The notes beneath the pieces are model-generated. The model searched no databases, was not told where the DNA came from, and saw only the letters and a program-made list of their open reading frames with translations. Shown here in pieces: positions 2,847 to 31,100 of a stretch of 43,440 bases of DNA. Source of the stretch: Verrucomicrobiota bacterium (GTDB lineage: Bacteria; Verrucomicrobiota; Verrucomicrobiia; Limisphaerales; JACPZS01); contig JACPZS010000033.1 in NCBI GenBank assembly GCA_016195385.1, forward strand, positions 1 to 43,440. The letters are read 5' to 3'. Made by a program: the position numbers and the translations under genes. Each line of letters opens with the position of its first letter. The first letter of the stretch is position 1.

Positions 2847-4247
2847 TCAACCCACTTCGCCGTTCAACTTGCGCGTCCAAGCGGCGGCCTCGGGTGGCGC
2901 TGGGTCAAAGGGATTGAGCAGGTTCAACGTGTTGATGCCTTCGACGTCGATGACTTCCCAGTCCACGAAATAACGCACCGTCAGTGGTTTGAGGAGGTGC
3001 ATGAGTTGCGAGCGCGAGTGGGCGCGACTGTTCGCCGGCGGATGGTACGTCGCGTGCGCGATCTCGCCGGCGCTCGCGACCCACTCGGCGGGCGTCTGGG
3101 ACAACTCCCAGCCGAGGTTGCGCGCGGGATCGACCTGGTGAAATTCCAAATCCTGTGACTTGAGCCACGGATCGTTCCACGAAATTTTTTCCTGCTCAAC
3201 GAATTGCTGCAGCAGCCAGCGCTTGGTGATCCAATCGACGCGCCCCACCAGCGCTTCCGGGCTGCGCGCCAAATCCCACAGCGTGCTCTCCCAAAGGTTC
3301 AGCAAATCGTCCGTCTCGATGTCGCGTCCGCGAAATTCGCTCCGCGCCAGTTCATAAAACTCCTGTAACAGCTCCACCGCATTCGCCGTCCGGCCGTCGC
3401 TCAACGGCACGAGCCACGGCCCGTCTGGCTGGTGCGAGAGCGAATGAAAGCACGTGACCGAATCGGCCAGGGAAACTTTCGGCATCCGATCAAGTTCGAG
3501 CAAATCCAGCACGAGCGCCGTCGTGCCGCACTTCAACAGCAGCGTCGCCGGCAGTACGCTCGTGTCGCCGTGGAGCAAATGCAGGCGGCGATATTTGCGG
3601 CCATCGGCGAGCGGCTCGTCACGCGTGTTGATGATGGCGCGATTGAATTGCACCCATTCAAATAACTCGTTCGTGATGTAGTCGGCGCGCTGGCTGATTT
3701 GAAAATGCGGATTCGCGCCGCGCCGCGTCAGGTCGCCGCGCAACTCCGCGCCCGGCGTGCTGCCGACGCGGCCCGCGCCGGCGTAGAGCACGCGCAGCGT
3801 CAAAAAAGTCAGCAGCGACAGGACGTTCGGTTCGGTCAACGGCGCGGTGCGGCGCACGAGATAGTTTTCGTGGCAACCGAACGTCGCGCCTGAATAGTGA
3901 TCGACGTTGTTGCGGATGAAGCTGACCTGCTCGACCATTTTCAATTCCTTCACCGCGCGCGTGAGGATCGCGTCGCCCGCCTGGTCGTAGAGCAGAAGGT
4001 CGCGCAACGAGACGCACTCGGGCGTGCAATACTCGAGGTGGCCCATATCGACGTAGGCGCGGCCGCCGTTGAACAGAAAACCACCGTTGCCCGCCGGCTC
4101 GTCCCAATCACGCTGGTGCAGGTCGGCGAGTCCGAGACGATGCTTGTCGAAAATCCAATTGCGCACGCGGCCGACGGCGCTGGGCGGGCCGACGGGATCG
4201 TTCACCAAACAACCGTACTCCGTCTCGAGGCCGACAATCCGGTTCAT
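2847..4247 (-). CDS. pafA: Pup/UBact--protein ligase PafA
   Basis: This 466-aa carboxylate-amine ligase is related to glutamine synthetase. It is predicted to couple the C-terminal glutamate of the Pup/UBact tag to substrate lysines, using ATP. The N-terminus MNRIVGLETEYG carries the metal-binding glutamates (E8, E10). AYVDMGHLEY gives the catalytic-base Asp (D67), and GCHENYLV, ISQRADYI and IINTRDEP are family motifs. It lacks the long N-terminal Dop insertion seen in the 6002-7516 gene, which is why this copy is called PafA. Length fits the family (about 450-480 aa). The ATG at 4247 overlaps the prcA stop as ATGA; the frame stays open upstream, but the longer version has no homology-like sequence. 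It is the last gene of the operon. Confidence 0.93.
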   Translation of the reverse strand: MNRIVGLETEYGCLVNDPVGPPSAVGRVRNWIFDKHRLGLADLHQRDWDEPAGNGGFLFNGGRAYVDMGHLEYCTPECVSLRDLLLYDQAGDAILTRAVKELKMVEQVSFIRNNVDHYSGATFGCHENYLVRRTAPLTEPNVLSLLTFLTLRVLYAGAGRVGSTPGAELRGDLTRRGANPHFQISQRADYITNELFEWVQFNRAIINTRDEPLADGRKYRRLHLLHGDTSVLPATLLLKCGTTALVLDLLELDRMPKVSLADSVTCFHSLSHQPDGPWLVPLSDGRTANAVELLQEFYELARSEFRGRDIETDDLLNLWESTLWDLARSPEALVGRVDWITKRWLLQQFVEQEKISWNDPWLKSQDLEFHQVDPARNLGWELSQTPAEWVASAGEIAHATYHPPANSRAHSRSQLMHLLKPLTVRYFVDWEVIDVEGINTLNLLNPFDPAPPEAAAWTRKLNGEVG

Positions 4248-4984
4248 AACCCGAGTTGCGCGAGCGTCAGATTTTCGTAGCGCGCCAGGCGTGGACTGGT
4301 GCGCGCGAGCCAGGCGATTTCCACTACACGTCCTTTCGCCGCTGCGCGCCAACCGTCACGGCGCTCCGCTTCGGTCGGAGTTGCTTCCGTGAATGACTTG
4401 CTTTCGGTCAGACACCACCAGGCTTGCAAAAGAAGTTCAGCGACGTCGGCGCGATTCGTCTTGCCGTTCAACTCGCGATTGAGCCACGTCTGGGCCGCCG
4501 CTTCGGCTTCGGGCACGCTGGCCGCAACGATCGCGCCCTGGTTTTGAAATTGGAACGCACCATCGAAATGCAATCGTAGCAAAACGTCGTGGCCCGCTTC
4601 GACGCCGACTTCGGCGAGCAGCAATTCGACGAGAAACGGCGCGCTGAAAATTTGCTCGAAGTTGGTTTTCAGTTGCGGACTTAGGCCAAAGCCCACAAGG
4701 CGGCGCAGGCTCACGTCTTCGGGCGCACGCGTGAATGCTTCGACATGCGCGGCGTCAATCGCGGCCTGGCGGATTTTTTCCAAGTCAGCCGGATGGCCAA
4801 GGCCGGTCAGCGCGTGGCGGTCGAACAATTCAAAAACCTTCGAGTTGCCGGCGCCGACGCCAAGCAGAAGAATGCCGCCCGGCAGACAGGCCGCGAACGC
4901 GGGCGAGCCGCCTTTCAACTGATCGCGCACGTACTCGCGGCGGTTCGCCACCGCTTCCAGCCAACGATAGGGTTCTTCGGTCAT
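4244..4984 (-). CDS. prcA: Proteasome alpha subunit PrcA
   Basis: This 246-aa Ntn-fold subunit is the non-catalytic outer ring of the 20S core, which gates substrate entry. It starts directly with the alpha-type N-terminal region (EEPYRWLEAVANRREYVRDQ) and has no propeptide or catalytic threonine. It is divergent in the middle but of normal length for bacterial PrcA (about 240-250 aa). Assignment rests strongly on position: it lies between prcB and pafA, as in the actinobacterial locus. Both ends are ATGA overlaps (4981-4984 with prcB, 4244-4247 with pafA), which indicates translational coupling and balanced ring-subunit synthesis. The C-terminus reads ENLTLAQLGL. Confidence 0.87.
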   Translation of the reverse strand: MTEEPYRWLEAVANRREYVRDQLKGGSPAFAACLPGGILLLGVGAGNSKVFELFDRHALTGLGHPADLEKIRQAAIDAAHVEAFTRAPEDVSLRRLVGFGLSPQLKTNFEQIFSAPFLVELLLAEVGVEAGHDVLLRLHFDGAFQFQNQGAIVAASVPEAEAAAQTWLNRELNGKTNRADVAELLLQAWWCLTESKSFTEATPTEAERRDGWRAAAKGRVVEIAWLARTSPRLARYENLTLAQLGL

Positions 4985-5754
4985 GACCTCAAAAATTCGG
5001 CCTGTTGCCCGGCGCTGATGGTTTGGACGCCCGCGGAGCCAAGCAATTTGATCGTGGCGAATGTTTGCGTTTCGGGATTCACGCCGCCGGTCGCTGAGTC
5101 AAATTCTGACGCGACGACCAAGAGCCGCAACGCGAACTGAACTGCCTGCGCAAGATTCATCTGCGACGGACGCGGCGTGCCATAGCGCTCCTGGTAACTA
5201 AGGATGCTGCGAATCGTGCCCGAGCCGGAACCACTGGCCGCGTGACCGACGGCCTGAAATTGCGCGCCAAGCGGATCGTAGAAAAAAATCTGCGGCTTCG
5301 CGGGCGTCGCAGAATGATCGAGTCCGGCAAAAAGCGGCACGACGATACCGACGCCCTGCATTGTCATCGGCAAGTTTTCGCGGAGCAGCCGTGCGAGCGC
5401 GCGAACTTTCGCCGGCAGGCTGAGTGATTGCAACTGACTGCGGCGGTAATACTCGAAGGATGTTTGCAAAACGCGCGCCATCTCGAACGCGGTCGCCGGC
5501 ACGCCGGCAATCGCGAGCAAAGAGCCGGCGTCGATCTCGATGATTTTGTCCACGCGATCCGTCACGATCACGTTGCCCGCCGTGGCGCGCCGGTCGCCCG
5601 CCATCAGCACGCCCTCGGCACAATGAAACGCGAAGACGGTGGTGGCTTGCGTTTGCACCGGCGCGGACGCGAGCGCTTCCGTTCGCAGTGGGGAGAAGGA
5701 TTTATTCGCGAGCAACGCGAGAAAATCGCCCGCGATCAGTGGCGCGTCGCTCAT
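4981..5754 (-). CDS. prcB: Proteasome beta subunit PrcB
   Basis: This 257-aa protein is the catalytic subunit of the 20S core, an N-terminal threonine hydrolase. A 37-residue propeptide precedes the mature start at TTVFAF (Thr38). Numbered from that Thr, Asp17 (in MAGDRR) and Lys33 (in RVDKII) fall exactly where the catalytic residues of bacterial PrcB lie, so it should be active after self-processing. AIAGVPATAFEMAR and YYRRSQLQ continue the beta-subunit pattern. The ATG overlaps the pup stop as ATGA (5751-5754) and the stop overlaps the prcA start in the same way. Confidence 0.94.
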   Translation of the reverse strand: MSDAPLIAGDFLALLANKSFSPLRTEALASAPVQTQATTVFAFHCAEGVLMAGDRRATAGNVIVTDRVDKIIEIDAGSLLAIAGVPATAFEMARVLQTSFEYYRRSQLQSLSLPAKVRALARLLRENLPMTMQGVGIVVPLFAGLDHSATPAKPQIFFYDPLGAQFQAVGHAASGSGSGTIRSILSYQERYGTPRPSQMNLAQAVQFALRLLVVASEFDSATGGVNPETQTFATIKLLGSAGVQTISAGQQAEFLRS

Positions 5755-5921
5755 TGGCCGGTGCGTTGGCGGTAGCGACGGGCCTGGTCGGGATCGACCT
5801 TGCGCATCCGTTTGAGCAATTCCTCGGTGTTGGGTTTATCCACTTTGGGCGCGCTGGGACCATCACCACCGCCACTGGGACCGGGCGTGATGGGCCGTGT
5901 TTTTTGAGCTTGGTCTGGCAT
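5751..5921 (-). CDS. pup: Prokaryotic ubiquitin-like protein (Pup/UBact)
   Basis: This 56-aa tag protein starts MPDQAQKTRPITPGPSGGG and ends RRYRQRTGQ. The Gly/Pro-rich, disordered N-terminal half and the charged helical C-terminal half (NTEELLKRMRKVDPDQARRY) match the Pup/UBact plan. The terminal Gly-Gln means it is made in the precursor form that Dop must deamidate to Gly-Glu before ligation. The ATG at 5921 is chosen because an in-frame upstream start (5978) adds a basic stretch unlike the family. It lies 80 bp after dop and overlaps prcB by ATGA. The alternative frame over the same DNA encodes nothing recognisable. The non-actinobacterial context fits the UBact branch described in Nitrospirae and Verrucomicrobia. 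Confidence 0.92.
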   Translation of the reverse strand: MPDQAQKTRPITPGPSGGGDGPSAPKVDKPNTEELLKRMRKVDPDQARRYRQRTGQ

Positions 5922-6001
5922 AAGTGAAGATTTGGTTTTGGAATTGGAGTTGTAAAATCCGCTTCGCACTTTTTGCACATCACCGCATTCGCTTCCTTTG
6001 G

Positions 6002-7516
6002 TCAGCTGATCAATTTTCGCAAGTTTTCCGGACTCGACGCGGCATCAACGGCGATACCGTAACGCAGGACATCGTCCGACGCGAACAAATCCATGAGCGA
6101 AATTTTGATCGGCCCGTGTTTGCCTTGCAACGTTATATGATCCCACTGGGCGGCCAGCACCGCGCTGGCAAATTTTTGCACGCAACGTCCGCGGACATAC
6201 GCGCGCGTGGCGCGTGGCGGATGGGAGATGGCGTGCAAAACCGCCTGCTCGTCCGGCACGCCGTGAATCGCGCCGGCTTGCTCCAAGCCGAAGTAAAGCC
6301 CTTCCGCCGCGTCTAGCCGGTGATATTCCAAATCGAGACTCTGCAGCCACGGATCGTCATCAGCCAGATTCTGCGCGGCTTGAAACTCACGCACGAGCGC
6401 GAGCTTGGCCACCCAGTCGAGCCGGTTTCGGCAGCGCATCACGTCTGTTTCCAAATCGTTCAAGATGGTTTCCCAATCGGCGACCAGCGCGGCTTTGTCC
6501 GGCTGGCTCAAATCGCAAACCTCGCGCACCAGACTCAGATAACTGCGTTGCACTTCCAGCGCCGTTGAGTCTCGCCGGCCTTCGAGCAGCAATTCCCATT
6601 TGAACCCGGCATCGCGAGAGATGGATGCCAGCGCTTCGAGCGGCTCGGCCAACTGCGGCCAGGCACGTCGCGAATCGCGCACGAGCGCTTCGAGCACAAG
6701 CGCCGTCGTCCCGACTTTCAGCCGCGTGGCGAACGAAGACATATTCGCGTCGCCGATGATGACATGGAAGCGCCGGAAAAGTTTCGGATTGGCGTGCGGT
6801 TCATCGCGCGTGTTCACGATGGGCCGGCGCTGCATCGTATCGACGCTTTGCAACTCGCTAAAAAAATCGCTGCGCTGGGAAATCTGGAACCCCGGCGAAA
6901 GAAATTGATCCTCCTCTTCGAGCGCGAATTTGCCGGCGCCGGCAAAAATTTGCCGCGTCACTAAAAAAGCCTGAATGCCGCGCACCAAATTTTCCCAAAG
7001 TAGTGAGCGGGGCAGCAGGTAATTTTCGTGGCAGCCGTAGCTGTGGCCGCGGAAGTCCGTGTTGTTTTTGTAGAGCCGCACCGTGCTGCCGCGCTGGGCC
7101 GAGAGCCGTTGCGCGCAGGCCATTAAAATGCGCTCGCCGGCGCGGTCTTGGGCGACGAGTTCCTCCAGCGTGCTGCATTCAGGCGTGCAGTATTCGGGAT
7201 GCGCGTGGTCATTGTAGAAGCGCGCGCCGTTGCCGATGACGTAATCACTTTTGATTTCGGCGAACGTCAGTTCGCGCTGCTGGTCTTGCGCGAAATACTG
7301 CGCCTCGTCGAAATCCTGCCGCAGTTCTTCGACATGGAACCCGCGCATGTCGGCATGCGGATCTTCGCAGCCGTAATCCCAGCGCATCAACACGCCCGGC
7401 TCGGTGATGCTGCGCACCAACGCAATCGATTCAGCAACGACGTCCAAATTCTCGTCGTCATCGCGCGCGATGCCGATCTCGGTTTCAAGGCCGAACTGGA
7501 TGATCGGAGATTTCAT
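6002..7516 (-). CDS. dop: Pup/UBact deamidase/depupylase Dop
   Basis: This 504-aa paralogue of PafA is predicted to convert the tag C-terminal Gln to Glu and to remove tags from proteins. It starts MKSPIIQFGLETEIGI (metal-binding E11 and E13). It carries the Dop-specific loop around residues 38-85, including LMRWDYGCEDP and ADMRGFHVEE, which resembles the RWDYEVESP...RGFD stretch of mycobacterial Dop. NGARFYNDHAHPEY gives the catalytic Asp (D103). KNNTDFRGHSYGCHENYL, ISQRSDFF and IVNTRDEPHA are shared motifs. Retention of the loop separates it from PafA. The order arc-dop-pup-prcB-prcA-pafA equals that of mycobacteria. Confidence 0.93.
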   Translation of the reverse strand: MKSPIIQFGLETEIGIARDDDENLDVVAESIALVRSITEPGVLMRWDYGCEDPHADMRGFHVEELRQDFDEAQYFAQDQQRELTFAEIKSDYVIGNGARFYNDHAHPEYCTPECSTLEELVAQDRAGERILMACAQRLSAQRGSTVRLYKNNTDFRGHSYGCHENYLLPRSLLWENLVRGIQAFLVTRQIFAGAGKFALEEEDQFLSPGFQISQRSDFFSELQSVDTMQRRPIVNTRDEPHANPKLFRRFHVIIGDANMSSFATRLKVGTTALVLEALVRDSRRAWPQLAEPLEALASISRDAGFKWELLLEGRRDSTALEVQRSYLSLVREVCDLSQPDKAALVADWETILNDLETDVMRCRNRLDWVAKLALVREFQAAQNLADDDPWLQSLDLEYHRLDAAEGLYFGLEQAGAIHGVPDEQAVLHAISHPPRATRAYVRGRCVQKFASAVLAAQWDHITLQGKHGPIKISLMDLFASDDVLRYGIAVDAASSPENLRKLIS

Positions 7517-7530
7517 GTAAAGCTGGAGAC

Positions 7531-7680
7531 TCAGGCGCGGCTGCTTAATTTGATCATTGCCACAGCGATAGTATCTAAGGATCCAAGTTCAATAATCCGG
7601 TCCAAGGAACCCGCCGGTCGAAACAACGTTGTTGGTTTGATGCAGCGCATGTCATTGTCATCAATGCGACAGTAATCCAT
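7531..7680 (-). CDS. Possible 49-aa hypothetical protein before dop
   Basis: An open frame runs from an ATG at 7680 to a stop at 7531. It sits between the membrane protein gene (stop at 7685) and dop (start at 7516), so it would fill the only sizeable gap in the operon. The product MDYCRIDDNDMRCIKPTTLF... has no recognised domain. An AAGGCG abuts the ATG too closely to be a good ribosome site. It may equally be untranslated leader of dop. Confidence 0.2.
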   Translation of the reverse strand: MDYCRIDDNDMRCIKPTTLFRPAGSLDRIIELGSLDTIAVAMIKLSSRA

Positions 7681-7684
7681 CGCC

Positions 7685-8002
7685 TTAATGCCCACCGACA
7701 AGTAGTATGATGCCACAACCAACAAGGGGAAGCGCAACCACCGACAAATAAGCTGCCAGTAACCCAAAGCGAGCGATCAACCTCCCGTACATCGCCTGTC
7801 GCGCGATGTGCCTAACGACTATATGACCGGAAACAATCGATGCGATGCTCAAAGCTAGACCGAGTGGAAAGCAAATTCGGAACAACGGACTGCCGCCAAA
7901 ACCAACCTGAAGAAATCCCGCTCCGAAAGCCATTACTAGCGGCAAGAAGGAGAGCCGACTGATCTTGGGCTGCTCACCAGATGAAGTGTCCGGGTTGCTC
8001 AT
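7685..8002 (-). CDS. Small multi-pass membrane protein in the proteasome operon
   Basis: This 105-aa protein has a polar N-terminus (MSNPDTSSGEQPKIS) and three hydrophobic segments, roughly residues 18-36, 43-62 and 80-103. The spacing and the GLALSIASIVSGHIVVRHIAR stretch (residues about 48-68) resemble small DUF4190-type membrane proteins, a weak match. The gene starts 25 bp after the ATPase stop and precedes dop, so it is probably cotranscribed with the proteasome genes. It is not part of the actinobacterial locus. Function is unknown; a membrane anchor or envelope link is only a guess. Confidence 0.62.
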   Translation of the reverse strand: MSNPDTSSGEQPKISRLSFLPLVMAFGAGFLQVGFGGSPLFRICFPLGLALSIASIVSGHIVVRHIARQAMYGRLIARFGLLAAYLSVVALPLVGCGIILLVGGH

Positions 8003-8026
8003 GTGAGACGATGCTTAACATCCGCT

Positions 8027-9736
8027 TCAAACCATGCTGCTCGGAGTCCCGTCGGTTTTGCGCGGGCGCACCGGCCCGAGCCGCACGACATTTTCCGGAT
8101 CGAAGTCGGTGAGTTTTAGCCAGTCTTCCGTGTTGTCGGTCGGGGGGAACAAATCGTTCTCCGCATACTCGGCTTGCAAGGCCGCCAGCAAATCATCGCG
8201 CGTGAGCAGCGTGTCGGCCTTCGTCGCAATGGCGCGTTTGATTGCGAGGCTCTTGGCGCGTTCGACGATCGCCGCGATGATGGCCCCGCTGGCCAGGTCG
8301 CCCCGATGAAGCATTTCTTTACGCCCGCTGCGCAGCGCGACTTCCAGAAACTCATTCGCCGGCGTGCGGGCAAAATGTGCCGTGGCAAGTGCCTTGGCCA
8401 ATTCGGCACGCGGTTCAGCCAGCGGCAACGACTCGCGTAAATAAATTTCGTAGATGGTTTGTGCCGCCGCTTGATCAGGCCGGCTGACTTTTATTTTGCG
8501 ATCGATGCGTCCGGGGCGGAGGATCGCCGGGTCGATCAGGTCGGCGCGATTCGACGCCAGAATCACCACAACGTTTTGCAATGGCTCGATGCCATCCATC
8601 TCGGTGCAGAACATCGGCACCAGCGTACTCAGGATGCTCGCGTAACGGCCGGCGCGGCGCGTGCCGAGAATTGATTCCGCTTCGTCAATGAAGAGAAACG
8701 CCAGCGCGCCGTCGTTCGCCCGCTCGCGGCATTGTGTGAAGAGGTCGCGCACTTGCCGCTCCGATTCGCCGACCCACATGTTCAAAATCTCCGGTCCTTT
8801 GACGTGCAGGAAAAATTCCGGATGATCGACACCGGTCTGCGTTTTGATTTGCTGACGCAGATTGTAAGCCGTCGCCTTCCCGAGAAGTGTCTTGCCACAA
8901 CCCGGCGGGCCGTAGAGCAGAAATCCCTTGGGCACGGTGTGCTGAAATTTCTTGAACAGATCGCGATGGAGGAACGGCAGTTCAATCGTGTCACGAATCG
9001 CCTGCACCGCGTCAGCCTGGCCGCCGATGGCCGACCACGGAAGTTCGCTGACGGCTTCGAGCGAACGCTCGACGCGCTTGCCCATGCCGATGACTTCGAG
9101 CCCGACCCGCTGATTGACATCCAAGCGAATTTCCAGGCCGGGCTTCAATTTTTCCTTCGCGAGCAGCGCCGAGCGGAGCAAAACGAGCGGCATGAGGCCG
9201 GATTCCTGGCCGATGCGCAGGCGGCCGTCGGAGAGCAGTTCGTCGATGCGCACGATGGGGCCGTTGCGCTCGAAACCAAGGCCGAGCACGACGGCGAAGG
9301 CTTCGTTGCACAGCACGCGCTGGCCAATTTGCAAACTGCTCAAGGGAATTTGCGGATCGACGCAGCAGACGTAGTCCGTGCCGCCGACGCAGACGTGCGC
9401 GCGGTCGGGTTCGAGCGCGGCAAGGAAAGTTCCGACGCGAAACGCCGGCGAACGAAGTTTCTCGACCACGGCGTCGAGCTTCTCGATGGTCTGGCGCGCC
9501 TCCTCGGTCATCTCTTCCATCGCCACGATGCGCTCGCGCAAATAAACCATATCGAGAATTGAGGAGTGGCGCGGAGGCAGCTTGCTGACGATCAAATCAA
9601 CCAATTGCAAGGCAGAGAGCGAATCCAATTGTTCGCGGGGAATGAGATCGCTGAGTGGTGAAGGGCCGCTGGCCGCACTTTCCGCCGGCCGGCCGGCATC
9701 TGAAGGCGCGGGCGCTTTCTTTTTGGACTCAGCCAT
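8027..9736 (-). CDS. arc: Proteasome-associated AAA+ ATPase (ARC/Mpa type)
   Basis: This 569-aa protein is the hexameric unfoldase predicted to recognise tagged proteins and feed them into the 20S core. Order of parts: a low-complexity N-terminus, a helical coiled-coil stretch (about 65-97) that in Mpa binds Pup, tandem OB-type beta regions (about 100-225), then one AAA+ module. That module has Walker A GPPGCGKT (276-283), Walker B AFLFIDEAE (D351, E352), a sensor region ILASNRADLIDPAILRPGR and arginines in RPGRIDRK. Length is close to Mpa (about 600 aa). Oddly, the C-terminus ends GTPSSMV; the Gln-Tyr-Leu-type docking tail of actinobacterial Mpa is absent, and no frameshifted version is seen near 8030-8100. 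It is the first gene of the operon. Confidence 0.92.
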   Translation of the reverse strand: MAESKKKAPAPSDAGRPAESAASGPSPLSDLIPREQLDSLSALQLVDLIVSKLPPRHSSILDMVYLRERIVAMEEMTEEARQTIEKLDAVVEKLRSPAFRVGTFLAALEPDRAHVCVGGTDYVCCVDPQIPLSSLQIGQRVLCNEAFAVVLGLGFERNGPIVRIDELLSDGRLRIGQESGLMPLVLLRSALLAKEKLKPGLEIRLDVNQRVGLEVIGMGKRVERSLEAVSELPWSAIGGQADAVQAIRDTIELPFLHRDLFKKFQHTVPKGFLLYGPPGCGKTLLGKATAYNLRQQIKTQTGVDHPEFFLHVKGPEILNMWVGESERQVRDLFTQCRERANDGALAFLFIDEAESILGTRRAGRYASILSTLVPMFCTEMDGIEPLQNVVVILASNRADLIDPAILRPGRIDRKIKVSRPDQAAAQTIYEIYLRESLPLAEPRAELAKALATAHFARTPANEFLEVALRSGRKEMLHRGDLASGAIIAAIVERAKSLAIKRAIATKADTLLTRDDLLAALQAEYAENDLFPPTDNTEDWLKLTDFDPENVVRLGPVRPRKTDGTPSSMV

Positions 9737-9906: not shown

Positions 9907-10716
9907 CTATCGCACCAAACCAGTCGTGCGTTCTTGGAGCCAAATCACGTCACGGTTGTTCGGTGAAGAAGTCATCAACGCGAGATTGTTGTGCTGCTTG
10001 ATTGGCGGATGCGTGCGCGGGTCGAGCCACTTTTTGATCTCGGCGTGGCCGTCGGCGAACGTGAGACCGGCCGCGCCAAGATGATAACTCGCCGGGATGT
10101 CCACGAGTTGGAGCGAGCCGGGAGCGCGCGGGTTTGCGCCGCGCATCGACACGACAAAGAAGCCGTTGTTGATGCGATCTTCGCGCTCATCGATCAGCAC
10201 CCACGTCTTCGACGGCGGCGGGTCGGCGAGGTCGGAGGTTTTGCGAATAACTTTGAATTGCCGCAATCCTTCCCACGCTTCGTCGGAGTTCAGCCAGTTG
10301 TTCATCGAGATGCTGCGCACGCGCGGATAAATTTTGCCGCCGTGCTTGGAAGTGCTTTTGTCCGCCGGACACCGCCAGATGACGAGTGATTGATGATACG
10401 GCCAGAGGTGGCTCGTCATCAGATAGACCGTGTTCGTGTTGTCGGGCACGGGATTTTGGTTGTCGAGCCAGCCGCGGACCCACGTCTGCCATTGGTTCAA
10501 GCCATCGAGATTGTTAGGTGGAATGCGCTCGTTGTTGTCATCGGCGTACATCATCCAAGACAAACTCATCTGCCGAAGATTGCTCAGGCATTGGATGCCT
10601 TGCGCCTTCGCCTTCGCGCCGCCGAGCGCCGGCAACAACATCGCCGCCAGAATCGCGATGATGGCGATGACGACAAGCAACTCGATCAAGGTGAAGCCCA
10701 CGCGTTTTGTTCTCAT
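9907..10716 (-). CDS. Prepilin-type N-terminal cleavage protein with H-X9-DG motif
   Basis: This 269-aa pseudopilin-like protein starts [14 protein letters not shown]. It has the prepilin peptidase site (G before FTLIE) and a hydrophobic helix rich in [14 protein letters not shown], so it is processed by a type IV prepilin peptidase and anchored in or exported through the inner membrane. Near the C-terminus, His followed by nine residues and Asp-Gly ([12 protein letters not shown]) is the H-X9-DG motif frequent in planctomycete and verrucomicrobial pseudopilins. The start at 10716 is chosen because the leader is then short and basic; the frame stays open to 10770. It follows a paralogue by 11 bp. 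Function is unknown. Confidence 0.83.
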
Positions 10717-10727
10717 GAAGGCAAGCT

Positions 10728-11486
10728 TTACGGATGCGGCTCGTGATCGATGTACCAGCGCCTTTTCCATGTGTCAGTTGATGGAAAGCAAAGTCGTTCG
10801 ACAGTCGGACTCTCCACATGACCGTCGGCCAGAACTGTATTCAACGTCTTTCGATGTGCGGGGCGATGCTTGGCGTAGCCGGCCACTTCCAGGCGGAACT
10901 GTGGCAGTTGTGCAGCCGTGTTGCTGCTTCGGCGGTTGAAGAAATTGGGGAAATATCCAAATCCGAAATTGGCATCAGTGGGACCCCAGCCGAACGTGGC
11001 GTCGCCGAAAGCGTACAAGTCGCTGGGAGCAATGACTTGGTTTTCGTAAGTGGGGATGACATTTCGCCCGATAGTGTCCAGCCCTCCTCCCAATCCCAAG
11101 GGCAATCCGAACTGGTTGTAACCATAATCGAACTTCTGCGTTCCCAATCGTCGCGGGGTGATCATAGCCGGACATCGCGACAGTTCCCCAAACGAGTGAC
11201 CTTGAAGATAGGAGCGTTGGAGAGCGTAGAGCCAGTCTGCATCTCTGGGCGGCTCGAAATTAAAATCGCCACTCGCAAGTGGATAATACTCGTAGTCGGC
11301 GACAAAGAGATTCAAAGCCACACCCCATTGATGGAGATTGCTCCTGCACGCAGCCAATTGAGCCGATTGCTTGGCCTTGCTCAATGCCGGCAACAGCATC
11401 GCCGCGAGAATCGCGACGATGGCGATGACGACGAGCAGTTCGATCAAAGTAAAACCGCTGCGCCCGAATTTTCCCCTGCTTTGCAT
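10728..11486 (-). CDS. Prepilin-type N-terminal cleavage protein with H-X9-DG motif
   Basis: This 252-aa protein has the leader [18 protein letters not shown] with a hydrophobic helix (residues 12-36). Its C-terminal [12 protein letters not shown] matches H-X9-DG. The middle, rich in Tyr, Phe and Gly ([22 protein letters not shown]), is unlike that of the downstream paralogue, so the two share only the ends. Both probably lie in one minus-strand transcript, divergent from the superoxide dismutase gene. The 262-bp gap up to 11748 would hold both promoters. Confidence 0.83.
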
Positions 11487-12561: not shown

Positions 12562-15500
12562 ATGCCCAAAGCTGATCGCAAGAACGGACACGCGTCACGT
12601 TCCGCCCTCACGGCCAAGTACGACGCACACCACACCGTCCTCAGCAAGACCTACGGCGCGCTGGCGGATTTGCGGCGCGAGCTTTCCGACTCGAAGGCCG
12701 CCGTCGCCGAACGCACGGAGATTCTGCAGACTTTTTCCCATTGCGCGGATTCGCAGCGCGCCTGGCTGCTCCTCGAAGATTACTTCGAGAAACTTTCGCT
12801 TTCGCGCAAAGATTTCACCGCGCAGGACTGGTGGCCGCGCCTGATGGCCGCGCAGGGCCAGGCACGCATCGAGGAGACGGCGCTGCTGTTCCTGCGATCG
12901 AACCGTCCGCTGCCCACCGAACTGGTGCCGCACGCGAACCTGGATCGATTTGCCGAAATCGAGCAGGCCGAGCAGGAACAGGCATTCCTGCACAAATTGG
13001 AGAACTGGCTTTTTCCACCCGCGCCCGTGCATCTCGATTCCCCTCGCGCGATGCTCCGCGTGCTCTGCCAGGTTCAACCCGCCGCGGATCATCCCTCGCT
13101 GCACGAACTGTCCGTGCAATTCAGTTTGTTCAAACCGCGCTCGGGCGAAAAACTTCGTCCGCTGGCCGAACTCACGGAGTTGACCGAGCGCGCCACGCAG
13201 GAGCAGGAACTCTTCGCCCCGGCGGACTGGGAATTCATCACCTGGTTGTCCGAAAATTATGCCGGGGCCGGGGCGCGCAACGGCTCGCTCAAGCTCCAAG
13301 GCGTGCAACTGCTCCAATGGCTCGCGCGCTGGGGACGCGAATCGCGCCTCGAATTGCCGGCCAGCGGCGTGGCGCTGAGTTTTCAGGGGCACGTCGCCGA
13401 ACTGACACCGCATTTGGAAAAACAGGGCGGGCAACTGTATTTCGCCCAACGCCTCGCGCTGGCTTCCAGCGACATCCCGCTCAACCAGGTTCGTTTCTTC
13501 GCCGGGGATCCGACGCTCGCCCTGGTGGAAGGCACGTTCTATTTGCTGCGCCACGCACCGCCTCATTCGTTGTTGGACGCGCTCGTCGCGGCACCGAGCC
13601 TGCCGGTGACAAAATTGAGCCATCGGATGTTGACGCATCTGCGCCGCGCGCGCCCGCAACAGAACGAGGACTGGGATCAACTGTGCGTCATTCACAAAGC
13701 AAAGCCGCAGTTCATTTTTGAACTGGAAGACGCCTCGGTGCGGTTGCGGCTCATCGCGCGCAGCGAACGCGATCAAAGCGCCGGGCAATGGAACGGCCAC
13801 GAGTGGCACGTCACCGAACCGGACCGGCCCAAGTCCGACAAGCCGGAAATCCTCGATGACCCACGTCTGCAGCCGGCGGCGCGCTGGTTGAGCCAGCTCG
13901 ACTGGTTCACGCCGGAGCCGGGCGTGTGGGTCGGCGACGCGAATGAAAATTTTTTGAACACGCTCGCGCAGGCGTGGCCCGACCGCCCGAATGACGCTGA
14001 TTACCTGGGCAATCCACCGTTCCACCGGTTGTTCCTTGCGCCGCGCAAGTTGAAGCCGCAAATCGTCGTGCATGGCAGCGGCATCGATTGGTTCTCGGTT
14101 TCCGCCGCGTGGGAGCAGGAGGGCATGAAATTGACGACGGCTGATTTGCAAATGTTGCAGAGCGCGACCGGTCGTTTTGTGAAGCTGCCCGACAGTGGTT
14201 GGATCGAACTCGATACGCAGGCAGTCCAATCGGCGCACGAAGTCCTCGCCGATCTCGGCGTGGACGGCCTCGTGCCGATGCCGCAACGGGTCGATCTGGA
14301 GCAGGCGACGCATCTGGACGAGGCGATGTTGCAGCGTTTCGGCGATCAACCACAGGCGAAGGAATTGCGCGAACGCATTGCCACGTTCGCCGGTTTGCCG
14401 GAAACCGAATTGCCCGGGCAATTAAATGCGGAATTGCGGCCGTATCAAAAGGACGGGTTCAACTTCCTGTGCCACCTCACGAATCTGAAGCTCGGCGGCA
14501 TCCTGGCCGACGACATGGGGTTGGGAAAAACACTGCAGACGCTGGCGTGGCTTTTGTGGCTCAAGGCGGAACATCCCAAAAAGCCCAAGCCCGCGCTCGT
14601 GATCTGCCCGGCGTCCGTGCTCCACAACTGGCGGCGCGAAGCGGAGAAGTTTACGCCGCAACTCAAAGTGCTCGTGCTGGAAAGCGGCGCCGCGCGCCAC
14701 AACCTCCGGCAGCAAATCCCGCAACACGACCTGATTGTCACGAACTATGCGCTGCTGCGCCGCGATTTGCCGGCGCTCAAGAAGTTTGACTTCCGCGTCG
14801 TCGTGCTCGACGAAGCGCAGTTCATCAAGAATCCATCGGCCCAAGTGACCGTCTCGGTGAAGCAATTGAAATCCGATCAGCGGCTTGCGCTTACCGGCAC
14901 GCCGCTGGAAAACCGCCTGCTCGATCTGTGGAGCATCGTCGATTTCATCCAGCCGATGTATCTCGGCAATCAGGCGCAGTTCCTGGAAAATTACGAGTCA
15001 CACAAGGAAGATCCGATTCAACTGGGCATCTCGCGGCGGCGGCTTTCCGCCAAGCTGCGGCCGGTGCTGTTGCGCCGCCTCAAAAAACAGGTCGCCAAAG
15101 ATTTGCCTGACCGCATCGAAGAGCGCCGCGATTGCGAACTCGGCGAAGCGCAGCGGAAACTTTACCTGGCTGAGTTGCGTCGCAGCCGCGATCAAGTGCA
15201 AAAGGCCGTCGATGAAAAAGGCCTCGCCAAGAGCAAAATCCATGTGCTCGCGGCGCTCACGCGGTTGCGGCAAATCTGCTGCCACCCGACGCTCGTGGGC
15301 AACGACTCGCCGTCCGGCAAAACTGAGACGCTGATGGAATTGCTCGAGCCGCTGCTGGCTGAAGGGCAAAAAGTTTTGGTCTTCAGCCAGTTCGTGCAGA
15401 TGCTCAAGCTCCTCGAAATCGAATGCCGCCAGCTCGAAATCCCGACGCACATCCTCACGGGCGAAACGAAGAACCGCCAGGAAGTTGTGCAAGTGTTCCA

Positions 15501-15822
15501 GGATGATCCGAATGCTTCTGTGTTTCTGCTCAGCCTTCGTGCGGCGGGCACAGGACTCAACCTGACCACGGCAAGCTATGTCGTGCTCTACGATCCGTGG
15601 TGGAACCCGGCGGTCGAGGCGCAGGCCATCGATCGATCACATCGCATCGGCCAGACGCGCACGGTGAACGCGTATCGTCTGATCGCGCCCGGCACGGTGG
15701 AGGAAAAAATCTGGGAGCTGCAGCAGCGCAAAGCGCAGACGATCACGGACGTGCTCGGCGAGGAAGGTTTCGCGCGCAGCCTGAGCAAGACAGATTTGGA
15801 TTACCTTTTCAGCGAAGACTGA
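12562..15822 (+). CDS. SNF2-family DNA translocase/helicase (target of island integration)
   Basis: This 1086-aa Swi2/Snf2 ATPase has a long N-terminal region of unknown fold (1-600) and a C-terminal RecA-type motor. Motif I ADDMGLGKT is near residues 647-655, motif II is LDEAQ (near 748), motif III is LTGTPLENR, and motif VI is AIDRSHRIGQ (near 1020). Such proteins move on duplex DNA and remodel protein-DNA complexes. No SWIM zinc finger is visible, unlike the paralogue at 28174. The final codons (SKTDLDYLFSED) fall within the left attachment repeat of the integrated element, so the gene end is a host/element hybrid that keeps the same stop. Before integration the stop lay about 15 bp from the convergent Sel1 gene now at 26179. 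Confidence 0.92.
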   Translation: MPKADRKNGHASRSALTAKYDAHHTVLSKTYGALADLRRELSDSKAAVAERTEILQTFSHCADSQRAWLLLEDYFEKLSLSRKDFTAQDWWPRLMAAQGQARIEETALLFLRSNRPLPTELVPHANLDRFAEIEQAEQEQAFLHKLENWLFPPAPVHLDSPRAMLRVLCQVQPAADHPSLHELSVQFSLFKPRSGEKLRPLAELTELTERATQEQELFAPADWEFITWLSENYAGAGARNGSLKLQGVQLLQWLARWGRESRLELPASGVALSFQGHVAELTPHLEKQGGQLYFAQRLALASSDIPLNQVRFFAGDPTLALVEGTFYLLRHAPPHSLLDALVAAPSLPVTKLSHRMLTHLRRARPQQNEDWDQLCVIHKAKPQFIFELEDASVRLRLIARSERDQSAGQWNGHEWHVTEPDRPKSDKPEILDDPRLQPAARWLSQLDWFTPEPGVWVGDANENFLNTLAQAWPDRPNDADYLGNPPFHRLFLAPRKLKPQIVVHGSGIDWFSVSAAWEQEGMKLTTADLQMLQSATGRFVKLPDSGWIELDTQAVQSAHEVLADLGVDGLVPMPQRVDLEQATHLDEAMLQRFGDQPQAKELRERIATFAGLPETELPGQLNAELRPYQKDGFNFLCHLTNLKLGGILADDMGLGKTLQTLAWLLWLKAEHPKKPKPALVICPASVLHNWRREAEKFTPQLKVLVLESGAARHNLRQQIPQHDLIVTNYALLRRDLPALKKFDFRVVVLDEAQFIKNPSAQVTVSVKQLKSDQRLALTGTPLENRLLDLWSIVDFIQPMYLGNQAQFLENYESHKEDPIQLGISRRRLSAKLRPVLLRRLKKQVAKDLPDRIEERRDCELGEAQRKLYLAELRRSRDQVQKAVDEKGLAKSKIHVLAALTRLRQICCHPTLVGNDSPSGKTETLMELLEPLLAEGQKVLVFSQFVQMLKLLEIECRQLEIPTHILTGETKNRQEVVQVFQDDPNASVFLLSLRAAGTGLNLTTASYVVLYDPWWNPAVEAQAIDRSHRIGQTRTVNAYRLIAPGTVEEKIWELQQRKAQTITDVLGEEGFARSLSKTDLDYLFSED
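15785..15822. repeat. attL: left attachment repeat in the SNF2 gene 3' end
   Basis: These 38 bp, ending exactly with the SNF2 stop codon, match 26126-26163 at 35 positions. The differences are three C/T changes at 15791, 15807 and 15819. The longest exact blocks are 15 bp (15792-15806) and 11 bp (15808-15818); strand exchange probably occurs inside one of them. The repeat keeps the coding sense, so integration leaves the gene intact. Confidence 0.85.
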
Positions 15823-24869: not shown

Positions 24870-26024
24870 TTATTTCACCGTGACGGATGGGATCACGCTC
24901 ACCGCCGCCCGCAGCGGTTCAAGTTCGTGATGCGAATAATTCTTGTTCATTTCCGCCGAGGCGTGGCCGGTAAGCAATTGCCGAATTTCTTGGGAAACAC
25001 CTCGATTCAACATTGCGGAATTGAAGCCGTGCCGGAAGGAGTGGAACGAAAGTTTGGAGAACGTGCGCCCCCTGGTGCCTTTGCGTGGCCCGGATGCGCC
25101 CGCCGCGATGCCCGCCTTTTCCATGATCCGGCTAAATGGCGTTGAAAGCCCTTGTGATCCGCCCGTCTTGCGCCCCGCCAGTGTTGAGAAAAGAAACGCT
25201 TCAGGATTGTCCTGCCCGGCAATCGTAAGTAAATGGGCTTCCAAGTCAGGATGCAAAGGGATCACAATTTCCTTGCCCGTGCGCGCTGTCTTCCGGGGCG
25301 TGAAACGAATTGTCTTCGCGGACAAGTCGATGGAAGTCCATTTCATGTTCGCCACATCCCAAAGCCGCGCGCCTGTGAAGTAGGCAAATAAAATCACGCC
25401 GCGCCAGTCTTGGGAAGGAGCCGCGCCCAAAAGTGCCGCTGTTTGTTCCGCCGTGAAGACTTCCTTCTTCACCGCCTTGTGCCCCAAATCATCCAAAGCT
25501 TCCGCCGGATTCTCGGTAATCAAACCTTGCCGGCGGGCCGCGTTGAATGCGGTGCGGATCACACTCACGCCCCGGTTGCACGTCCTGCCCGATTTGCCGG
25601 CATGGATTTCGGCATCGCGGAATGATTTCACATCGCGCGAGGATATGTGGGCGATGTTCAAGGCCGCACGCTTGCCAAGATGTTTGATGAAGCGATCAAC
25701 GACGTAGCCGTAACTCTCGCCCGTGCCTTGGCTGCGAGTTTGTTTTTTGCCGGCAAGCCAGTCCCGAAGCCAGTCTTCCACAGTGTAAAAGTGGAGCGGT
25801 TCGCCCGTGGTGCGTTCCACAATTTCGGAAATCACCCGGCGGGCTTGCGCTTCCGTCAAGATGCCTTTGCCCGCCTTGCGTTCCGCTTCCGCCCAGGCCA
25901 GGCACACCACCCACGCCTTGTTTTTGTCTTTCTCCTTCGTGCTGCGCTGGGTTCGTTCACCGTTCGATTTGCGATAGCAGCAAATCCAGTAAGGACTTCC
26001 GGGCCGTTGCTTGATGGATGGCAT
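24870..26024 (-). CDS. int: Tyrosine site-specific integrase of the island
   Basis: This 384-aa phage-type integrase has an N-terminal arm-binding/SAM-like region (1-170), with the core-binding part around EDWLRDWLAGKK, and a C-terminal catalytic domain. Active-site residues are Arg220 (YFTGARLWDVANMKW), a Lys in the RKTARTGK beta-hairpin (near 245), His328-x-x-Arg331 (FHSFRHG), His354 (LLTGHAS) and the nucleophile Tyr363 (NYSHHEL). It should insert and excise the element at the SNF2 3' end. It lies about 100 bases inside attR and reads away from it. Its promoter overlaps the paired TGCACACA sites, so autoregulation is likely. Confidence 0.94.
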   Translation of the reverse strand: MPSIKQRPGSPYWICCYRKSNGERTQRSTKEKDKNKAWVVCLAWAEAERKAGKGILTEAQARRVISEIVERTTGEPLHFYTVEDWLRDWLAGKKQTRSQGTGESYGYVVDRFIKHLGKRAALNIAHISSRDVKSFRDAEIHAGKSGRTCNRGVSVIRTAFNAARRQGLITENPAEALDDLGHKAVKKEVFTAEQTAALLGAAPSQDWRGVILFAYFTGARLWDVANMKWTSIDLSAKTIRFTPRKTARTGKEIVIPLHPDLEAHLLTIAGQDNPEAFLFSTLAGRKTGGSQGLSTPFSRIMEKAGIAAGASGPRKGTRGRTFSKLSFHSFRHGFNSAMLNRGVSQEIRQLLTGHASAEMNKNYSHHELEPLRAAVSVIPSVTVK

Positions 26025-28173: not shown

Positions 28174-31100
28174 ATGATGGATACGTTTGAACTGCACGCA
28201 CCGGAGATGGCAGCGGCCTACCTCGACGCGTTCGAGCCAGAGACGCGCCGACGCGGCGAGGATTACTTCCGTCGCGGGCGCGTGGGCGAAATTTCCTGCG
28301 CCGAACCGGGCGTGCGGTTTGTCGCCCCGGTGCAAGGTTCGATGCTCTACCAAGTGGAACTGTTTTACGACGACGCCGACGAAGGCTGGTTTGGCGATTG
28401 CACCTGTCCGATGGAATACGATTGCAAGCACGCCTACGCCGCAATGAAGGCGTTGCTCGCGGAGCAAAGCGTGGCACGTGTGCGCGAAATCAGCGCCGGC
28501 GCGGTGGCGAAATCAGCTCCCGCCACGCGGCAAAAAAAAGAATCGATCGCCATCATCCCGTTGGCGGATCAGGTCGTCGCCGCACTGGGCCGGCCGCTGA
28601 ATCGCGAAGAAGCCAAGTTTCTCCGCCAGTTCAAAACCGTGTATGACCAATGCTGCCGGCAGCGCCGCATCACGCGCTGGGATTTCCAGCAACTCGGGCT
28701 GCCGCTCGGCGGCTACGGCTGGGAGGCGCTGAAAATCTGGCCGGCCTTTCCGCAGAGCGAGCATGAATTCTGGCTCTACGTCGCCAATGAAGCCATGCAG
28801 CATCACGTCCCATTGCCGGATTTTCTGGCGCCGGTTACGAACGTCGCCGCGATCCAAGATCGCCTTGCGAATTGGCGGCGCGCGGAAGAAATCGGGCGTT
28901 GGAATCATCTCCTCGGCAACTTGCGGGACTGGCATGACAATGCGCCGGCAATCGCTCGCGGTGAATGCGATCTTCGGATCAAGGTCGGCGAGAAGGAAGC
29001 TATCCTCGAATGGAAGCGGCCGGACCACGAGGATTTTGAAACCATCAAAAACACGCAACTGCACCAACTCGACCGTGATCACCGGCAGGGCCGGGTTTTA
29101 CTTCCCGCCGAGGCCGAATTGATCTGGCGCTCCTTCCAACCACGGCTGCACTACAACCGCACCGTGCGCCTGCCGTTCGTCGATCCCGAAATGCTCGCCT
29201 TGCTCGCGGGATTTTTCCGCGTGCGCGCGCTCGAAAGCCGGCTGGTGAACGCCGCCGGACAGCCGTTTGCGCGGCCGCCGGAGCCGCTGCGCTGGAATTT
29301 GAAGTCTGCGGCCGCCGAAGACGGCAATTACATTCTGCGCGTCACGCAAGCCGACGGCACGCCGGTACCGCCGTTGCTCTGCACGCTGCCGGGAAATCCG
29401 CCGCTGTATCTCACGCGCGACGCGCTCTTCACCGGCCCAGCGGTGCCCGAACACGTGCTCGAACCGGCGTCGGAAAATCACATCCCCGCCCCCGCGCTCG
29501 AAAGCCGTCCCGGCTTGGAATTGCTGCAACGCCTCGGCGTCGAGTTGCCGCCGCGCGTGCGCGAACGTGTGCGCCGCGTGCCAGTGAACGTCGCCATTCG
29601 CTGCGAACTCAAACCGATTTATCCCGGCAGCCAGTCGGAGAATTGTCTCTTTCACGTGCTGGCGCAGTCCGAAGACGGACAAGTGGAAGAAACCTGGACG
29701 GGTTCGTCTTGGGGCGGCACGTTGCGTGCGTCGCCTCCCAAAAACAAATCCAAGCGGGAGGAATTCATCGCGCTTTACGACCGCGCGCTCATGCACGCCG
29801 TGCCGCGTTTGTTCGAACCGCTCGGCCTCAAGTCTGACGCCTACTCGCGGCTGCCCGCGTTACGCGTGACGAAAAAATTTCCGGAACTTTTCGTTCCGTG
29901 GCTCAAGTCGCTTCCGCCGCAAATTATTGTGCGACTGGACGGCGAACTGGCCTCGCTCGCGCAGGACGCCGTGTCCGGCCAGGTCCGGCTGGACGTGACG
30001 GAGACGCAGATGGATTGGTTCGATCTGCGCGTCGTGCTCGATGTGTCCGACACGACACTCACGCCGGCGGAACTCAAGTTGTTGCTCGATGCGAAAGGCG
30101 GCTTCGTCCGGCTCGGCGCGAAAGGCTGGCGGCGTTTGCAATTTAATCTGACCGACGAAGAAGATGAGCGGCTCGCGCGGCTCGGTTTGAATCCGCATGA
30201 GTTGACCTCCGAACCGCAACGCCTGCACGCGCTGCAACTCGCGGACGAGGCGGCGAAGAAATTTCTGCCCGAACAACAGGCCGCGCAAATCCAGCGTCGC
30301 GCCAGTGAAATCAAAGCGCGCGTTACGCCGGAATTGCCCGGCGGCGTGAGCGCGACGTTGCGACCATACCAACTCGAAGGGTTTCACTTCCTGGCTTACC
30401 TCGCGGCCAATCGCTTCGGCGGCATCCTCGCCGACGACATGGGCCTGGGCAAAACATTACAGACGCTGACATGGCTGGCGTGGCTGCGCAGCCAAACTCC
30501 CCAGACGCCAGACGCCAGACGCCATCCCCCATCTCTCGTCGTTTGTCCGAAGTCCGTGATGGACAACTGGCGGGCGGAGATCGTGCGTTTCACGCCGGAT
30601 TTGCGCGTGCGCATCTGGTCCGCGAGTGAACTGCCGAGCCTGCTCAAGAAACTTGGCGAAGCCGATTTACACGTCATCAATTACAGCCAGCTTCGACTCG
30701 TGGGCGAAGCCCTCGCGCCTGTGTCGTGGCTCGCGGTGATTCTCGACGAAGGCCAATACATCAAAAACCCCAACTCGCAGACGGCGCAAGTAGCGCGGGC
30801 GCTGCGCGCGGATTATCGCCTCGCGCTGTCCGGCACGCCGATTGAAAACAAACTGCTCGACCTCTGGAGCCTCATGGCATTCGCGATGCCCGGCGTGCTC
30901 GGCAGCCGCGCGCAGTTTGCGAAAATGTTCGACGCGAAAGAAGACCCATTCGCCCGCCGCCGGCTGTCCGCGCGCGTGCGGCCCTTTCTGTTGCGGCGCA
31001 CCAAAGCGCAGGTTGCCAAAGATCTGCCCGATCGCATCGAGGAAGATTTATTTTGCGAAATCGAAGGCGAGCAAAAGGCGCTCTATCGCGCCGAACTCAA

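What the first reader, a model, noticed from the sequence alone, without database searches (positions are those of the whole stretch)
2847..9736. Complete Pup/UBact-proteasome operon in a non-actinobacterial genome
All parts of the tagging and degradation route are in one run: ATPase, Dop, tag, PrcB, PrcA, PafA, in the mycobacterial order. Catalytic residues are visible in PrcB (Thr1, Asp17, Lys33 of the mature form), in Dop (D103) and in PafA (D67). The flanking genes look verrucomicrobial. This is the strongest candidate for a poorly studied system in the window.
Basis: partly seen in the sequence, partly recalled or inferred. Interest (0 to 1): 0.82.

Follow-up and report, generated by a model that had tools for sequence, protein, structure and literature searches.

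The report
UBact proteasome operon without tyrosine tail
This stretch of a bacterial genome, whose closest named relatives are Verrucomicrobiota, holds the complete gene set of an already known protein-tagging and proteasome system, and its ATP-driven motor protein lacks the tyrosine tail by which mycobacterial motors dock to the proteasome, so it likely docks in a different way.

Summary
Window 2847-9736 (minus strand) holds an intact operon: ATPase, Dop, tag, PrcB, PrcA, PafA, with the stated catalytic residues. The tag is UBact (PF20513 and NF033388, above cut-off), not Pup. It is not actinobacterial contamination: the six genes recur in this order in 30 of 89 related loci, and the window's Dop and PafA nest inside verrucomicrobial clades. 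As a system it is a new member of a known kind; Pup-like conjugation and proteasomes in Verrucomicrobia have been in print since 2008-2017. What I did not find in print is the docking interface. All 63 ATPase C-termini examined (63 genes, window included) end in Val or Ile, with no aromatic residue in the last ten: GQYL/HbYX is absent. In 73 aligned PrcA the residues contacting the tail's carboxylate and backbone in M. tuberculosis (Lys52, Asp144) are invariant, while the two contacting the tyrosine are replaced (Arg26 kept in 1 of 73, Glu119 in none). I infer a tyrosine-free tail that still docks by its carboxylate. PafA has its own invariant alpha-loop motif; the tree excludes it from Dop but, unrooted, cannot prove it a PafA orthologue. 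No biochemistry was tested.

The parts
8027..9736 (-). Proteasomal AAA+ ATPase (ARC/Mpa type), 569 aa; pore loop W321-V322-G323; C-terminus ...TPSSMV, no GQYL/HbYX
   Evidence: TIGR03689 422 bits, PF17758, PF00004; PDB Mpa 7px9 E 5e-94; tails
8030..8068 (-). Codons of the last 13 residues of the ATPase: the tyrosine-free tail, predicted to dock
   Evidence: 46 of 46 C-termini and 18 of 18 (one gene counted twice there) end in V or I, none with an aromatic residue in the last ten
7531..8002 (-). Two overlapping small ORFs (7685-8002, 105 aa, hydrophobic; 7531-7767, 78 aa) between ATPase and Dop; no family, not conserved, probably not part of the system
   Evidence: no Pfam or NCBIfam match at E 0.001; no tblastn match at E 1e-4 in 89 related loci
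6002..7516 (-). Dop: deamidase/de-conjugating enzyme, 504 aa, with Dop-loop region and catalytic D103
   Evidence: PF03136 484 bits, TIGR03688 435 bits; PDB 4b0r E 8e-101; groups with actinobacterial Dop 99/96; E11, E13, D103 in 53 of 53
5751..5921 (-). UBact tag, 56 aa, ends ...RRYRQRTGQ
   Evidence: PF20513 83.4 bits, NF033388 84.1 bits, both above cut-off; aligned with 89 relatives
4981..5754 (-). PrcB, catalytic proteasome beta subunit, 257 aa, predicted 37-residue propeptide, mature Thr1 = T38
   Evidence: PF00227 85.6 bits, TIGR03690 143.6 bits; T38, D54, K70 in 84 of 84; Rhodococcus beta 2h6j E 1e-25
4244..4984 (-). PrcA, proteasome alpha subunit, 246 aa; pocket Lys49 and Asp141 kept, Tyr-contact positions Gly25 and Leu118 changed
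   Evidence: TIGR03691 50.3 bits; AlphaFold2 pLDDT 93.0; Foldseek: chains of Mtb proteasome entries first (E 4e-13; the listing does not say which subunit), Rhodococcus alpha 1q5q_A rank 13, E 7e-13; columns
2847..4247 (-). PafA-type enzyme, likely UBact ligase, 466 aa, catalytic D67; alpha-loop motif E197-W-V-Q-F-N-R203
   Evidence: PF03136 371 bits; outside the Dop clade; motif and D67; AlphaFold2 pLDDT 89.8

Best explanation
The window encodes a complete and intact UBact tagging and proteasome gene set of Verrucomicrobiota type, which likely marks proteins with UBact and feeds them to a 20S proteasome through an ATPase that would dock by its C-terminal carboxylate without a penultimate tyrosine. 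Predicted route: Dop deamidates the C-terminal Gln of UBact to Glu; PafA uses ATP to join that Glu to lysines of target proteins, and Dop can remove the tag; the ATPase ring binds UBact, pulls the substrate through its W-V-G pore loops and passes it to a PrcA/PrcB barrel that cuts with the N-terminal Thr of PrcB. Docking: the tail [VI]-[VI]-COOH would enter the pocket between alpha subunits, its carboxylate held by PrcA Lys49 and its backbone by Asp141 of the neighbour, without the tyrosine contacts used in mycobacteria. Gene identities, catalytic residues, tail ends and the conservation pattern are shown; every biochemical step and the docking geometry are inferred.
For: Families and residues. 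Six genes in this order in 30 of 89 loci. Clade membership of Dop and PafA. Proteasome fold of PrcA. Tail: 46 of 46 and 18 of 18 (one gene twice) end in V/I, none with an aromatic residue in the last ten. Pocket: equivalents of Mtb Lys52 and Asp144 are K and D in 73 of 73 PrcA; the equivalent of Arg26 is R in 1 of 73; the equivalent of Glu119 is E in 0 of 73. These four are tail-contact residues in M. tuberculosis (PMC9599533 passages; PMC6466877 passage). Tag end: GQ in the window and 67 of 89 loci, GE in 22.
Against: PrcA, PrcB, PafA, Dop and the ATPase of the window all score below the NCBIfam equivalog cut-offs. The PafA gene scores higher against the Dop model (283) than the PafA model (248), its predicted fold matches Dop and PafA structures about equally, and the unrooted tree only excludes it from Dop; it cannot show that it is sister to actinobacterial PafA. 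The pocket comparison rests on an alignment to Mtb PrcA scoring only 27 bits. A further contact, Ser146, is S in only 27 of 73. No ATPase from UBact-bearing phyla other than Verrucomicrobiota was examined. No complex was modelled. Conservation of Lys49 and Asp141, two of 26 fully invariant PrcA positions, could also serve ring assembly.
Confidence: 0.78

Rival explanations
1. The ATPase does not use its tail to dock. It contacts the alpha ring mainly through the hairpin of its C-terminal beta-grasp domain, or works as a stand-alone unfoldase, and the missing GQYL is simple loss.
For: The hairpin tip is basic and partly invariant (R469, S470, G471 in 39 of 39, R or K at 472), and in Mtb hairpin residues touch the alpha-ring H0 helices (PMC8755798 passages). 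The ATPase gene is not always beside prcBA: it is seen in 36 of 56 loci with at least 5 kb before UBact.
Against: The tail end does not drift: V or I in 64 of 64 rows, and carboxylate- and backbone-contact residues of PrcA are invariant. In 30 of 89 loci the ATPase gene heads the six-gene run.
Confidence: 0.2
2. The 2847-4247 gene is not a ligase but a second de-conjugating or otherwise different enzyme of the PafA/Dop family, so the system removes tags or only deamidates UBact.
For: TIGR03688 (Dop) outscores TIGR03686 (PafA); alpha-loop unlike actinobacterial PafA and without a predicted helix; the first five Foldseek hits are Dop; the tree, unrooted, does not join it to actinobacterial PafA in particular.
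Against: By eye it lacks the Dop-loop region. The window's and all other verrucomicrobial Dop in the tree join actinobacterial Dop to its exclusion, 99/96 (which also warns that two long branches meet). PF03136 gives two matches in 46 of 56 carriers, one in 1 and three or four, mostly pieces, in 9, as expected of a ligase and depupylase pair.
Confidence: 0.11
3. Actinobacterial DNA contaminating a Verrucomicrobia assembly.
For: The gene order is that known from actinobacteria (recalled).
Against: The tag is UBact, not Pup; same operon in Verrucomicrobiota loci; 100/100 verrucomicrobial clades; operon G+C 0.600 against 0.579 for the rest of the window.
Confidence: 0.01

Closest known systems
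UBact-proteasome system of Gram-negative bacteria (Pfam PF20513, NCBIfam NF033388; the original UBact paper is recalled, not held)
   Same: UBact tag, PafA/Dop pair, PrcB/PrcA, ATPase; taxonomic range including Verrucomicrobia
   Different: Nothing in kind; the tyrosine-free tail and altered alpha pocket were not mentioned in the passages I read
Mycobacterial Pup-proteasome system (Mpa, Dop, Pup, PrcBA, PafA)
   Same: Same enzyme families, catalytic residues, tag ending in G-Q, alpha-pocket Lys and Asp
   Different: UBact instead of Pup; ATPase ends in two aliphatic residues as a rule ([VI][VI] in 39 of 46, M, T or A before the last residue in 7) instead of GQYL; pocket Arg26 and Glu119 replaced; pore loop W-V-G instead of F-V-G; different PafA alpha-loop; no Bpa found in this genome (whose control rang nowhere, so not conclusive)
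Proteasome activators whose tails lack the HbYX tyrosine, such as 11S/PA26 (recalled)
   Same: Tail binding through the carboxylate and a pocket lysine without a penultimate tyrosine
   Different: Those are not ATPases of this family; resemblance in working, not membership

Membership tests
UBact (PF20513 / NF033388) | Profile score above curated cut-off | tested here: met
   83.4 bits against 27.8 and 84.1 against 35
UBact (PF20513 / NF033388) | C-terminal Gly-Glu or Gly-Gln | tested here: met
   window ends RTGQ; 67 GQ and 22 GE among 89 loci
UBact (PF20513 / NF033388) | Conjugation to lysines of proteins | not testable with these tools
   needs mass spectrometry
Pup (PF05639) | Profile match | tested here: not met
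   0 matches in the whole genome; control Corynebacterium glutamicum rang
Bacterial 20S beta subunit (PrcB) | N-terminal Thr nucleophile with Asp17 and Lys33 | tested here: met
   T38, D54, K70 in 84 of 84; equivalog cut-off of TIGR03690 not reached (143.6 against 191.9)
Bacterial 20S alpha subunit (PrcA) | Alpha-type proteasome fold with N-terminal H0 helix | tested here: met
   model pLDDT 93.0, helix 3-23; Foldseek to Rhodococcus alpha 1q5q_A E 7e-13, TMt 0.80 (the higher-ranked Mtb chains are not labelled by subunit); sequence profile under its cut-off (50 against 139)
Dop (TIGR03688) | Dop-loop region and catalytic Asp; groups with actinobacterial Dop | tested here: met
   equivalog cut-off not reached (435 against 492)
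PafA (TIGR03686) | Family fold with catalytic Asp, no Dop-loop, not inside the Dop clade | tested here: met
   excluded from Dop 99/96; D67 in 47 of 47; Dop-loop judged by eye
PafA (TIGR03686) | Sister group of actinobacterial PafA | tested here: inconclusive
   three groups meet in an unrooted tree; no outgroup was at hand
PafA (TIGR03686) | Equivalog cut-off of the profile | tested here: not met
   248.5 against 551.3; Dop model scores 282.7
PafA (TIGR03686) | Helical alpha-loop with the actinobacterial sequence | tested here: inconclusive
   sequence differs; model shows no helix there but at pLDDT about 70
Mpa/ARC proteasomal ATPase (TIGR03689) | OB, AAA and C-terminal regions aligned over the length | tested here: met
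   residues 66-554 align to Mpa; profile 422 against cut-off 505, so under it
Mpa/ARC proteasomal ATPase (TIGR03689) | C-terminal GQYL docking motif of mycobacterial Mpa | tested here: not met
   so it is ARC-like, not an Mpa in the strict sense

The most novel reading that the evidence does not exclude
Verrucomicrobiota run a distinct branch of bacterial proteasome whose ATPase docks without any HbYX tyrosine: the tyrosine and its two partner residues in the alpha pocket (Arg26, Glu119) were lost together, while the lysine and aspartate that hold the tail's carboxylate and backbone were kept, giving a natural carboxylate-only docking ATPase.
Probability: 0.5. Interest if true: 0.58.

Novelty: new member of a known kind. 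Interest (0 to 1): 0.4.

Why it matters
To my knowledge (recalled) UBact systems are known mostly from sequence, and the biochemistry of bacterial proteasomes comes from actinobacteria, much of it from a pathogen. A compact operon from another lineage is a usable source of all parts. If the tyrosine-free tail docks, it separates the role of the HbYX tyrosine from that of the carboxylate-lysine bridge in an ATPase-driven proteasome, a question otherwise approached by mutants.

Tried and rejected
Contamination: rejected. A clade thought to lack PrcA and PafA (L023, L025, L027, L028, L044, L066, L068): rejected; both genes are found elsewhere in 7 of 7 of these genomes. Extra copies: none found; the genome has two PF03136 matches and one PF00227 match, all in this operon (PF00227 does not detect this PrcA). 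The small ORFs at 7531-8002 as a conserved partner: rejected. Deciding ligase against depupylase by fold: inconclusive. A family-level count of UBact carriers held only the own genome. A search for the Bpa activator found nothing, but its control rang nowhere, so it shows nothing. Origin by trees against Nitrospirota or Armatimonadota, and trees of PrcA, PrcB and the ATPase: not done. (a DNA pattern in L043) was an idle probe without a result.
Full report
OBSERVATION. The operon is real and intact. On the minus strand, 9736 down to 2847, run an ATPase (569 aa), Dop (504 aa), a 56-aa tag, PrcB (257 aa), PrcA (246 aa) and PafA (466 aa). From the tag to PafA each neighbouring pair overlaps by four bases. 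Between ATPase and Dop lie 510 bases with two overlapping small ORFs without a family and without a tblastn match at E 1e-4 in 89 related loci. Family scores are: the tag is UBact by both Pfam and NCBIfam, above cut-off; the whole genome has no Pup match. The other five proteins score below the NCBIfam equivalog cut-offs. The genome has no other PF03136 or PF00227 match.

WHERE IT BELONGS. A scan of genome contigs with a UBact alignment gave 325 relatives among 450 matched stretches; the best 80 were kept. By title 73 of the 80 are Verrucomicrobiota or subgroups of it, one is 'PVC group', and six carry other names (see the last field). All six genes follow in the window's order in 30 of 89; of the 45 loci with at least 5 kb before and 4 kb after UBact, 20 show it. 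The ATPase is found in 36 of 56 loci with 5 kb before UBact, Dop in 44 of these; PrcA in 63 and PafA in 39 of 72 loci with 4 kb after it. So the full run is common but not universal; in several genomes parts lie elsewhere. In sampled genomes UBact passed the cut-off in 10 of 288 of the phylum (12 at E 0.001), and PF03136 occurred in 56 of 286 of the class (different draws, own genome included). PrcA had 1960 homologues at E 0.001, of which the best 120 were listed; those that bear an organism name are Verrucomicrobia or Pedosphaera. A tree of 62 Dop and PafA rows puts the window's genes inside verrucomicrobial clades (100/100 each) and joins verrucomicrobial with actinobacterial Dop (99/96) to the exclusion of both PafA groups. 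The verrucomicrobial rows were a hand-picked subset (29 of 53 Dop, 24 of 47 PafA), with 7 Corynebacterium PafA of 120 listed and 2 actinobacterial Dop; the root is a midpoint, and the program warned that the two PafA groups are long branches that meet. Contamination from actinobacteria is excluded.

DOCKING TAIL. Mycobacterial Mpa docks by a C-terminal GQYL with a penultimate tyrosine (PMC8755798, passages; PMC12288473, passages). The window's ATPase ends TPSSMV. Of 46 C-termini (window plus 45 loci, seven of them from genes cut at the other end) all end in V or I; the penultimate residue is I 22, V 17, M 3, T 3, A 1; none has an aromatic residue in the last ten. To sample genomes whose ATPase was not in the locus I searched 18 more handles, two of which are one genome; 17 of 18 matched at E 1e-60, giving 18 C-termini, all ending in V or I, penultimate V 16 and I 2, none aromatic. 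L135 and L136 are the same gene, so 64 rows stand for 63 genes; L128 and L144 lie in one genome. Many rows are close relatives (44 different last-60-residue stretches among the first 46), so these are not 63 independent events.

POCKET. In M. tuberculosis the tail tyrosine contacts PrcA Arg26 or Glu119, the carboxylate contacts Lys52 in one of two modes seen with Mpa and with PafE/Bpa, and the backbone contacts Asp144 and Ser146 of the neighbour (PMC9599533, passages); a review gives the lysine and arginine contacts for Bpa (PMC6466877, passage). I placed these on the window's PrcA by eye from the pairwise alignment (27 bits, ungapped around Arg26; the model's helix 3-23 and strand 29-34 agree). 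In 73 PrcA (window plus 72 loci, all different; five cut ones dropped): Lys52 is K49 in 73 of 73; Asp144 is D141 in 73 of 73; Arg26 is position 25, G 39, P 11, S 9, R only 1 (L059); Glu119 is position 118, L 64, I 6, M 3, E 0; Ser146 is position 143, S in 27. Of 246 positions 26 are fully invariant. So residues that met the tyrosine are gone and the main ones that meet carboxylate and backbone stay. That is the pattern expected if a tyrosine-free tail still docks. It is inference: no complex was modelled, and invariance may have other causes.

LIGASE. The 2847-4247 gene lacks the Dop-loop region by eye and lies outside the Dop clade, but scores higher with the Dop profile. Its alpha-loop, which in actinobacteria is a helix in PafA and a loop in Dop (PMC7947786, passages), reads E-W-V-Q-[FH]-N-R: W198, Q200, N202 and R203 in 47 of 47 (window plus 46; three rows dropped), E197 in 46 of 47. 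This is unlike the C. glutamicum PafA and the Acidothermus Dop. The model shows no helix there, at pLDDT about 70; Foldseek ranks Dop structures first and PafA 4bjr sixth with similar E-values and TM-scores. I keep it as PafA, the likely ligase.

TAG. UBact ends GQ in the window and 67 of 89 loci, GE in 22, so in most of them Dop deamidation would be needed before ligation, as for mycobacterial Pup (general knowledge).

PRIOR WORK. Pup-like conjugation outside actinobacteria including Verrucomicrobia: PMC2588565 (passages, one from the abstract). Dop/PafA homologues sporadic in Verrucomicrobia: PMC7947786 (passages). Gram-negative proteasome subunits of Armatimonadetes, Nitrospirae and Verrucomicrobia: PMC5666114 (passages). 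The paper that named UBact is recalled and not in the library; a search for the word gave 18 papers, most from other fields by title; of the two I opened, one mentions UBact in passing (PMC11354881) and the held part of the other does not hold the word (PMC7203096). I found no description of the verrucomicrobial ATPase tail or pocket in the listings or in the passages read; most subscription journals are not covered.

VERDICT. An ordinary, complete member of a known system, with one specific and testable peculiarity shared by the relatives examined: a tyrosine-free tail.

Noticed in passing
L024, L035, L036, L041, L043, L089, L096, just before the ATPase gene; in the window's genome at G000:C98:55142-56134 (L145): A regulator gene lies on the same strand just before the UBact ATPase in 7 relatives; its L043 copy has HTH_11, WYL and WCX domains (the only copy checked). 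The window's genome has a 72% identical copy on another contig. It recalls PafBC, the WYL regulators beside actinobacterial pafA (recalled).
   Followed up: partly
L027, L028, L044, L049, L052, L085 (and L025, L035, L042): UBact operons or parts of them in records titled Proteobacteria, Klebsiella pneumoniae, Betaproteobacteria, Bacteroidetes or Omnitrophota (and three titled Akkermansia muciniphila) carry UBact 71-91% identical to the window's; these record titles are probably wrong.
   Followed up: no
L023, L025, L027, L028, L044, L066, L068: A group close to the window in which UBact and PrcB (and Dop where the contig shows it, except L025) stay together while PrcA and PafA are found elsewhere in the genome.
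   Followed up: yes
window 8768-8779, ATPase residues 320-323: The pore loop is M-W-[VL]-G with the Trp invariant in 39 of 39 aligned ATPases, against F-V-G in mycobacterial Mpa.
   Followed up: partly
window 9907-11486: Two prepilin-like genes with N-terminal methylation motifs and DUF1559 matches under the cut-off lie upstream of the operon, a type common in the PVC group (the group remark is recalled).
   Followed up: no
window 12562-15822, 28174-31746 and 24870-26024: Two long SNF2-type helicase-like ORFs (1086 and 1190 aa) on the plus strand, and an integrase-like ORF on the minus strand; judged by eye only.
   Followed up: no
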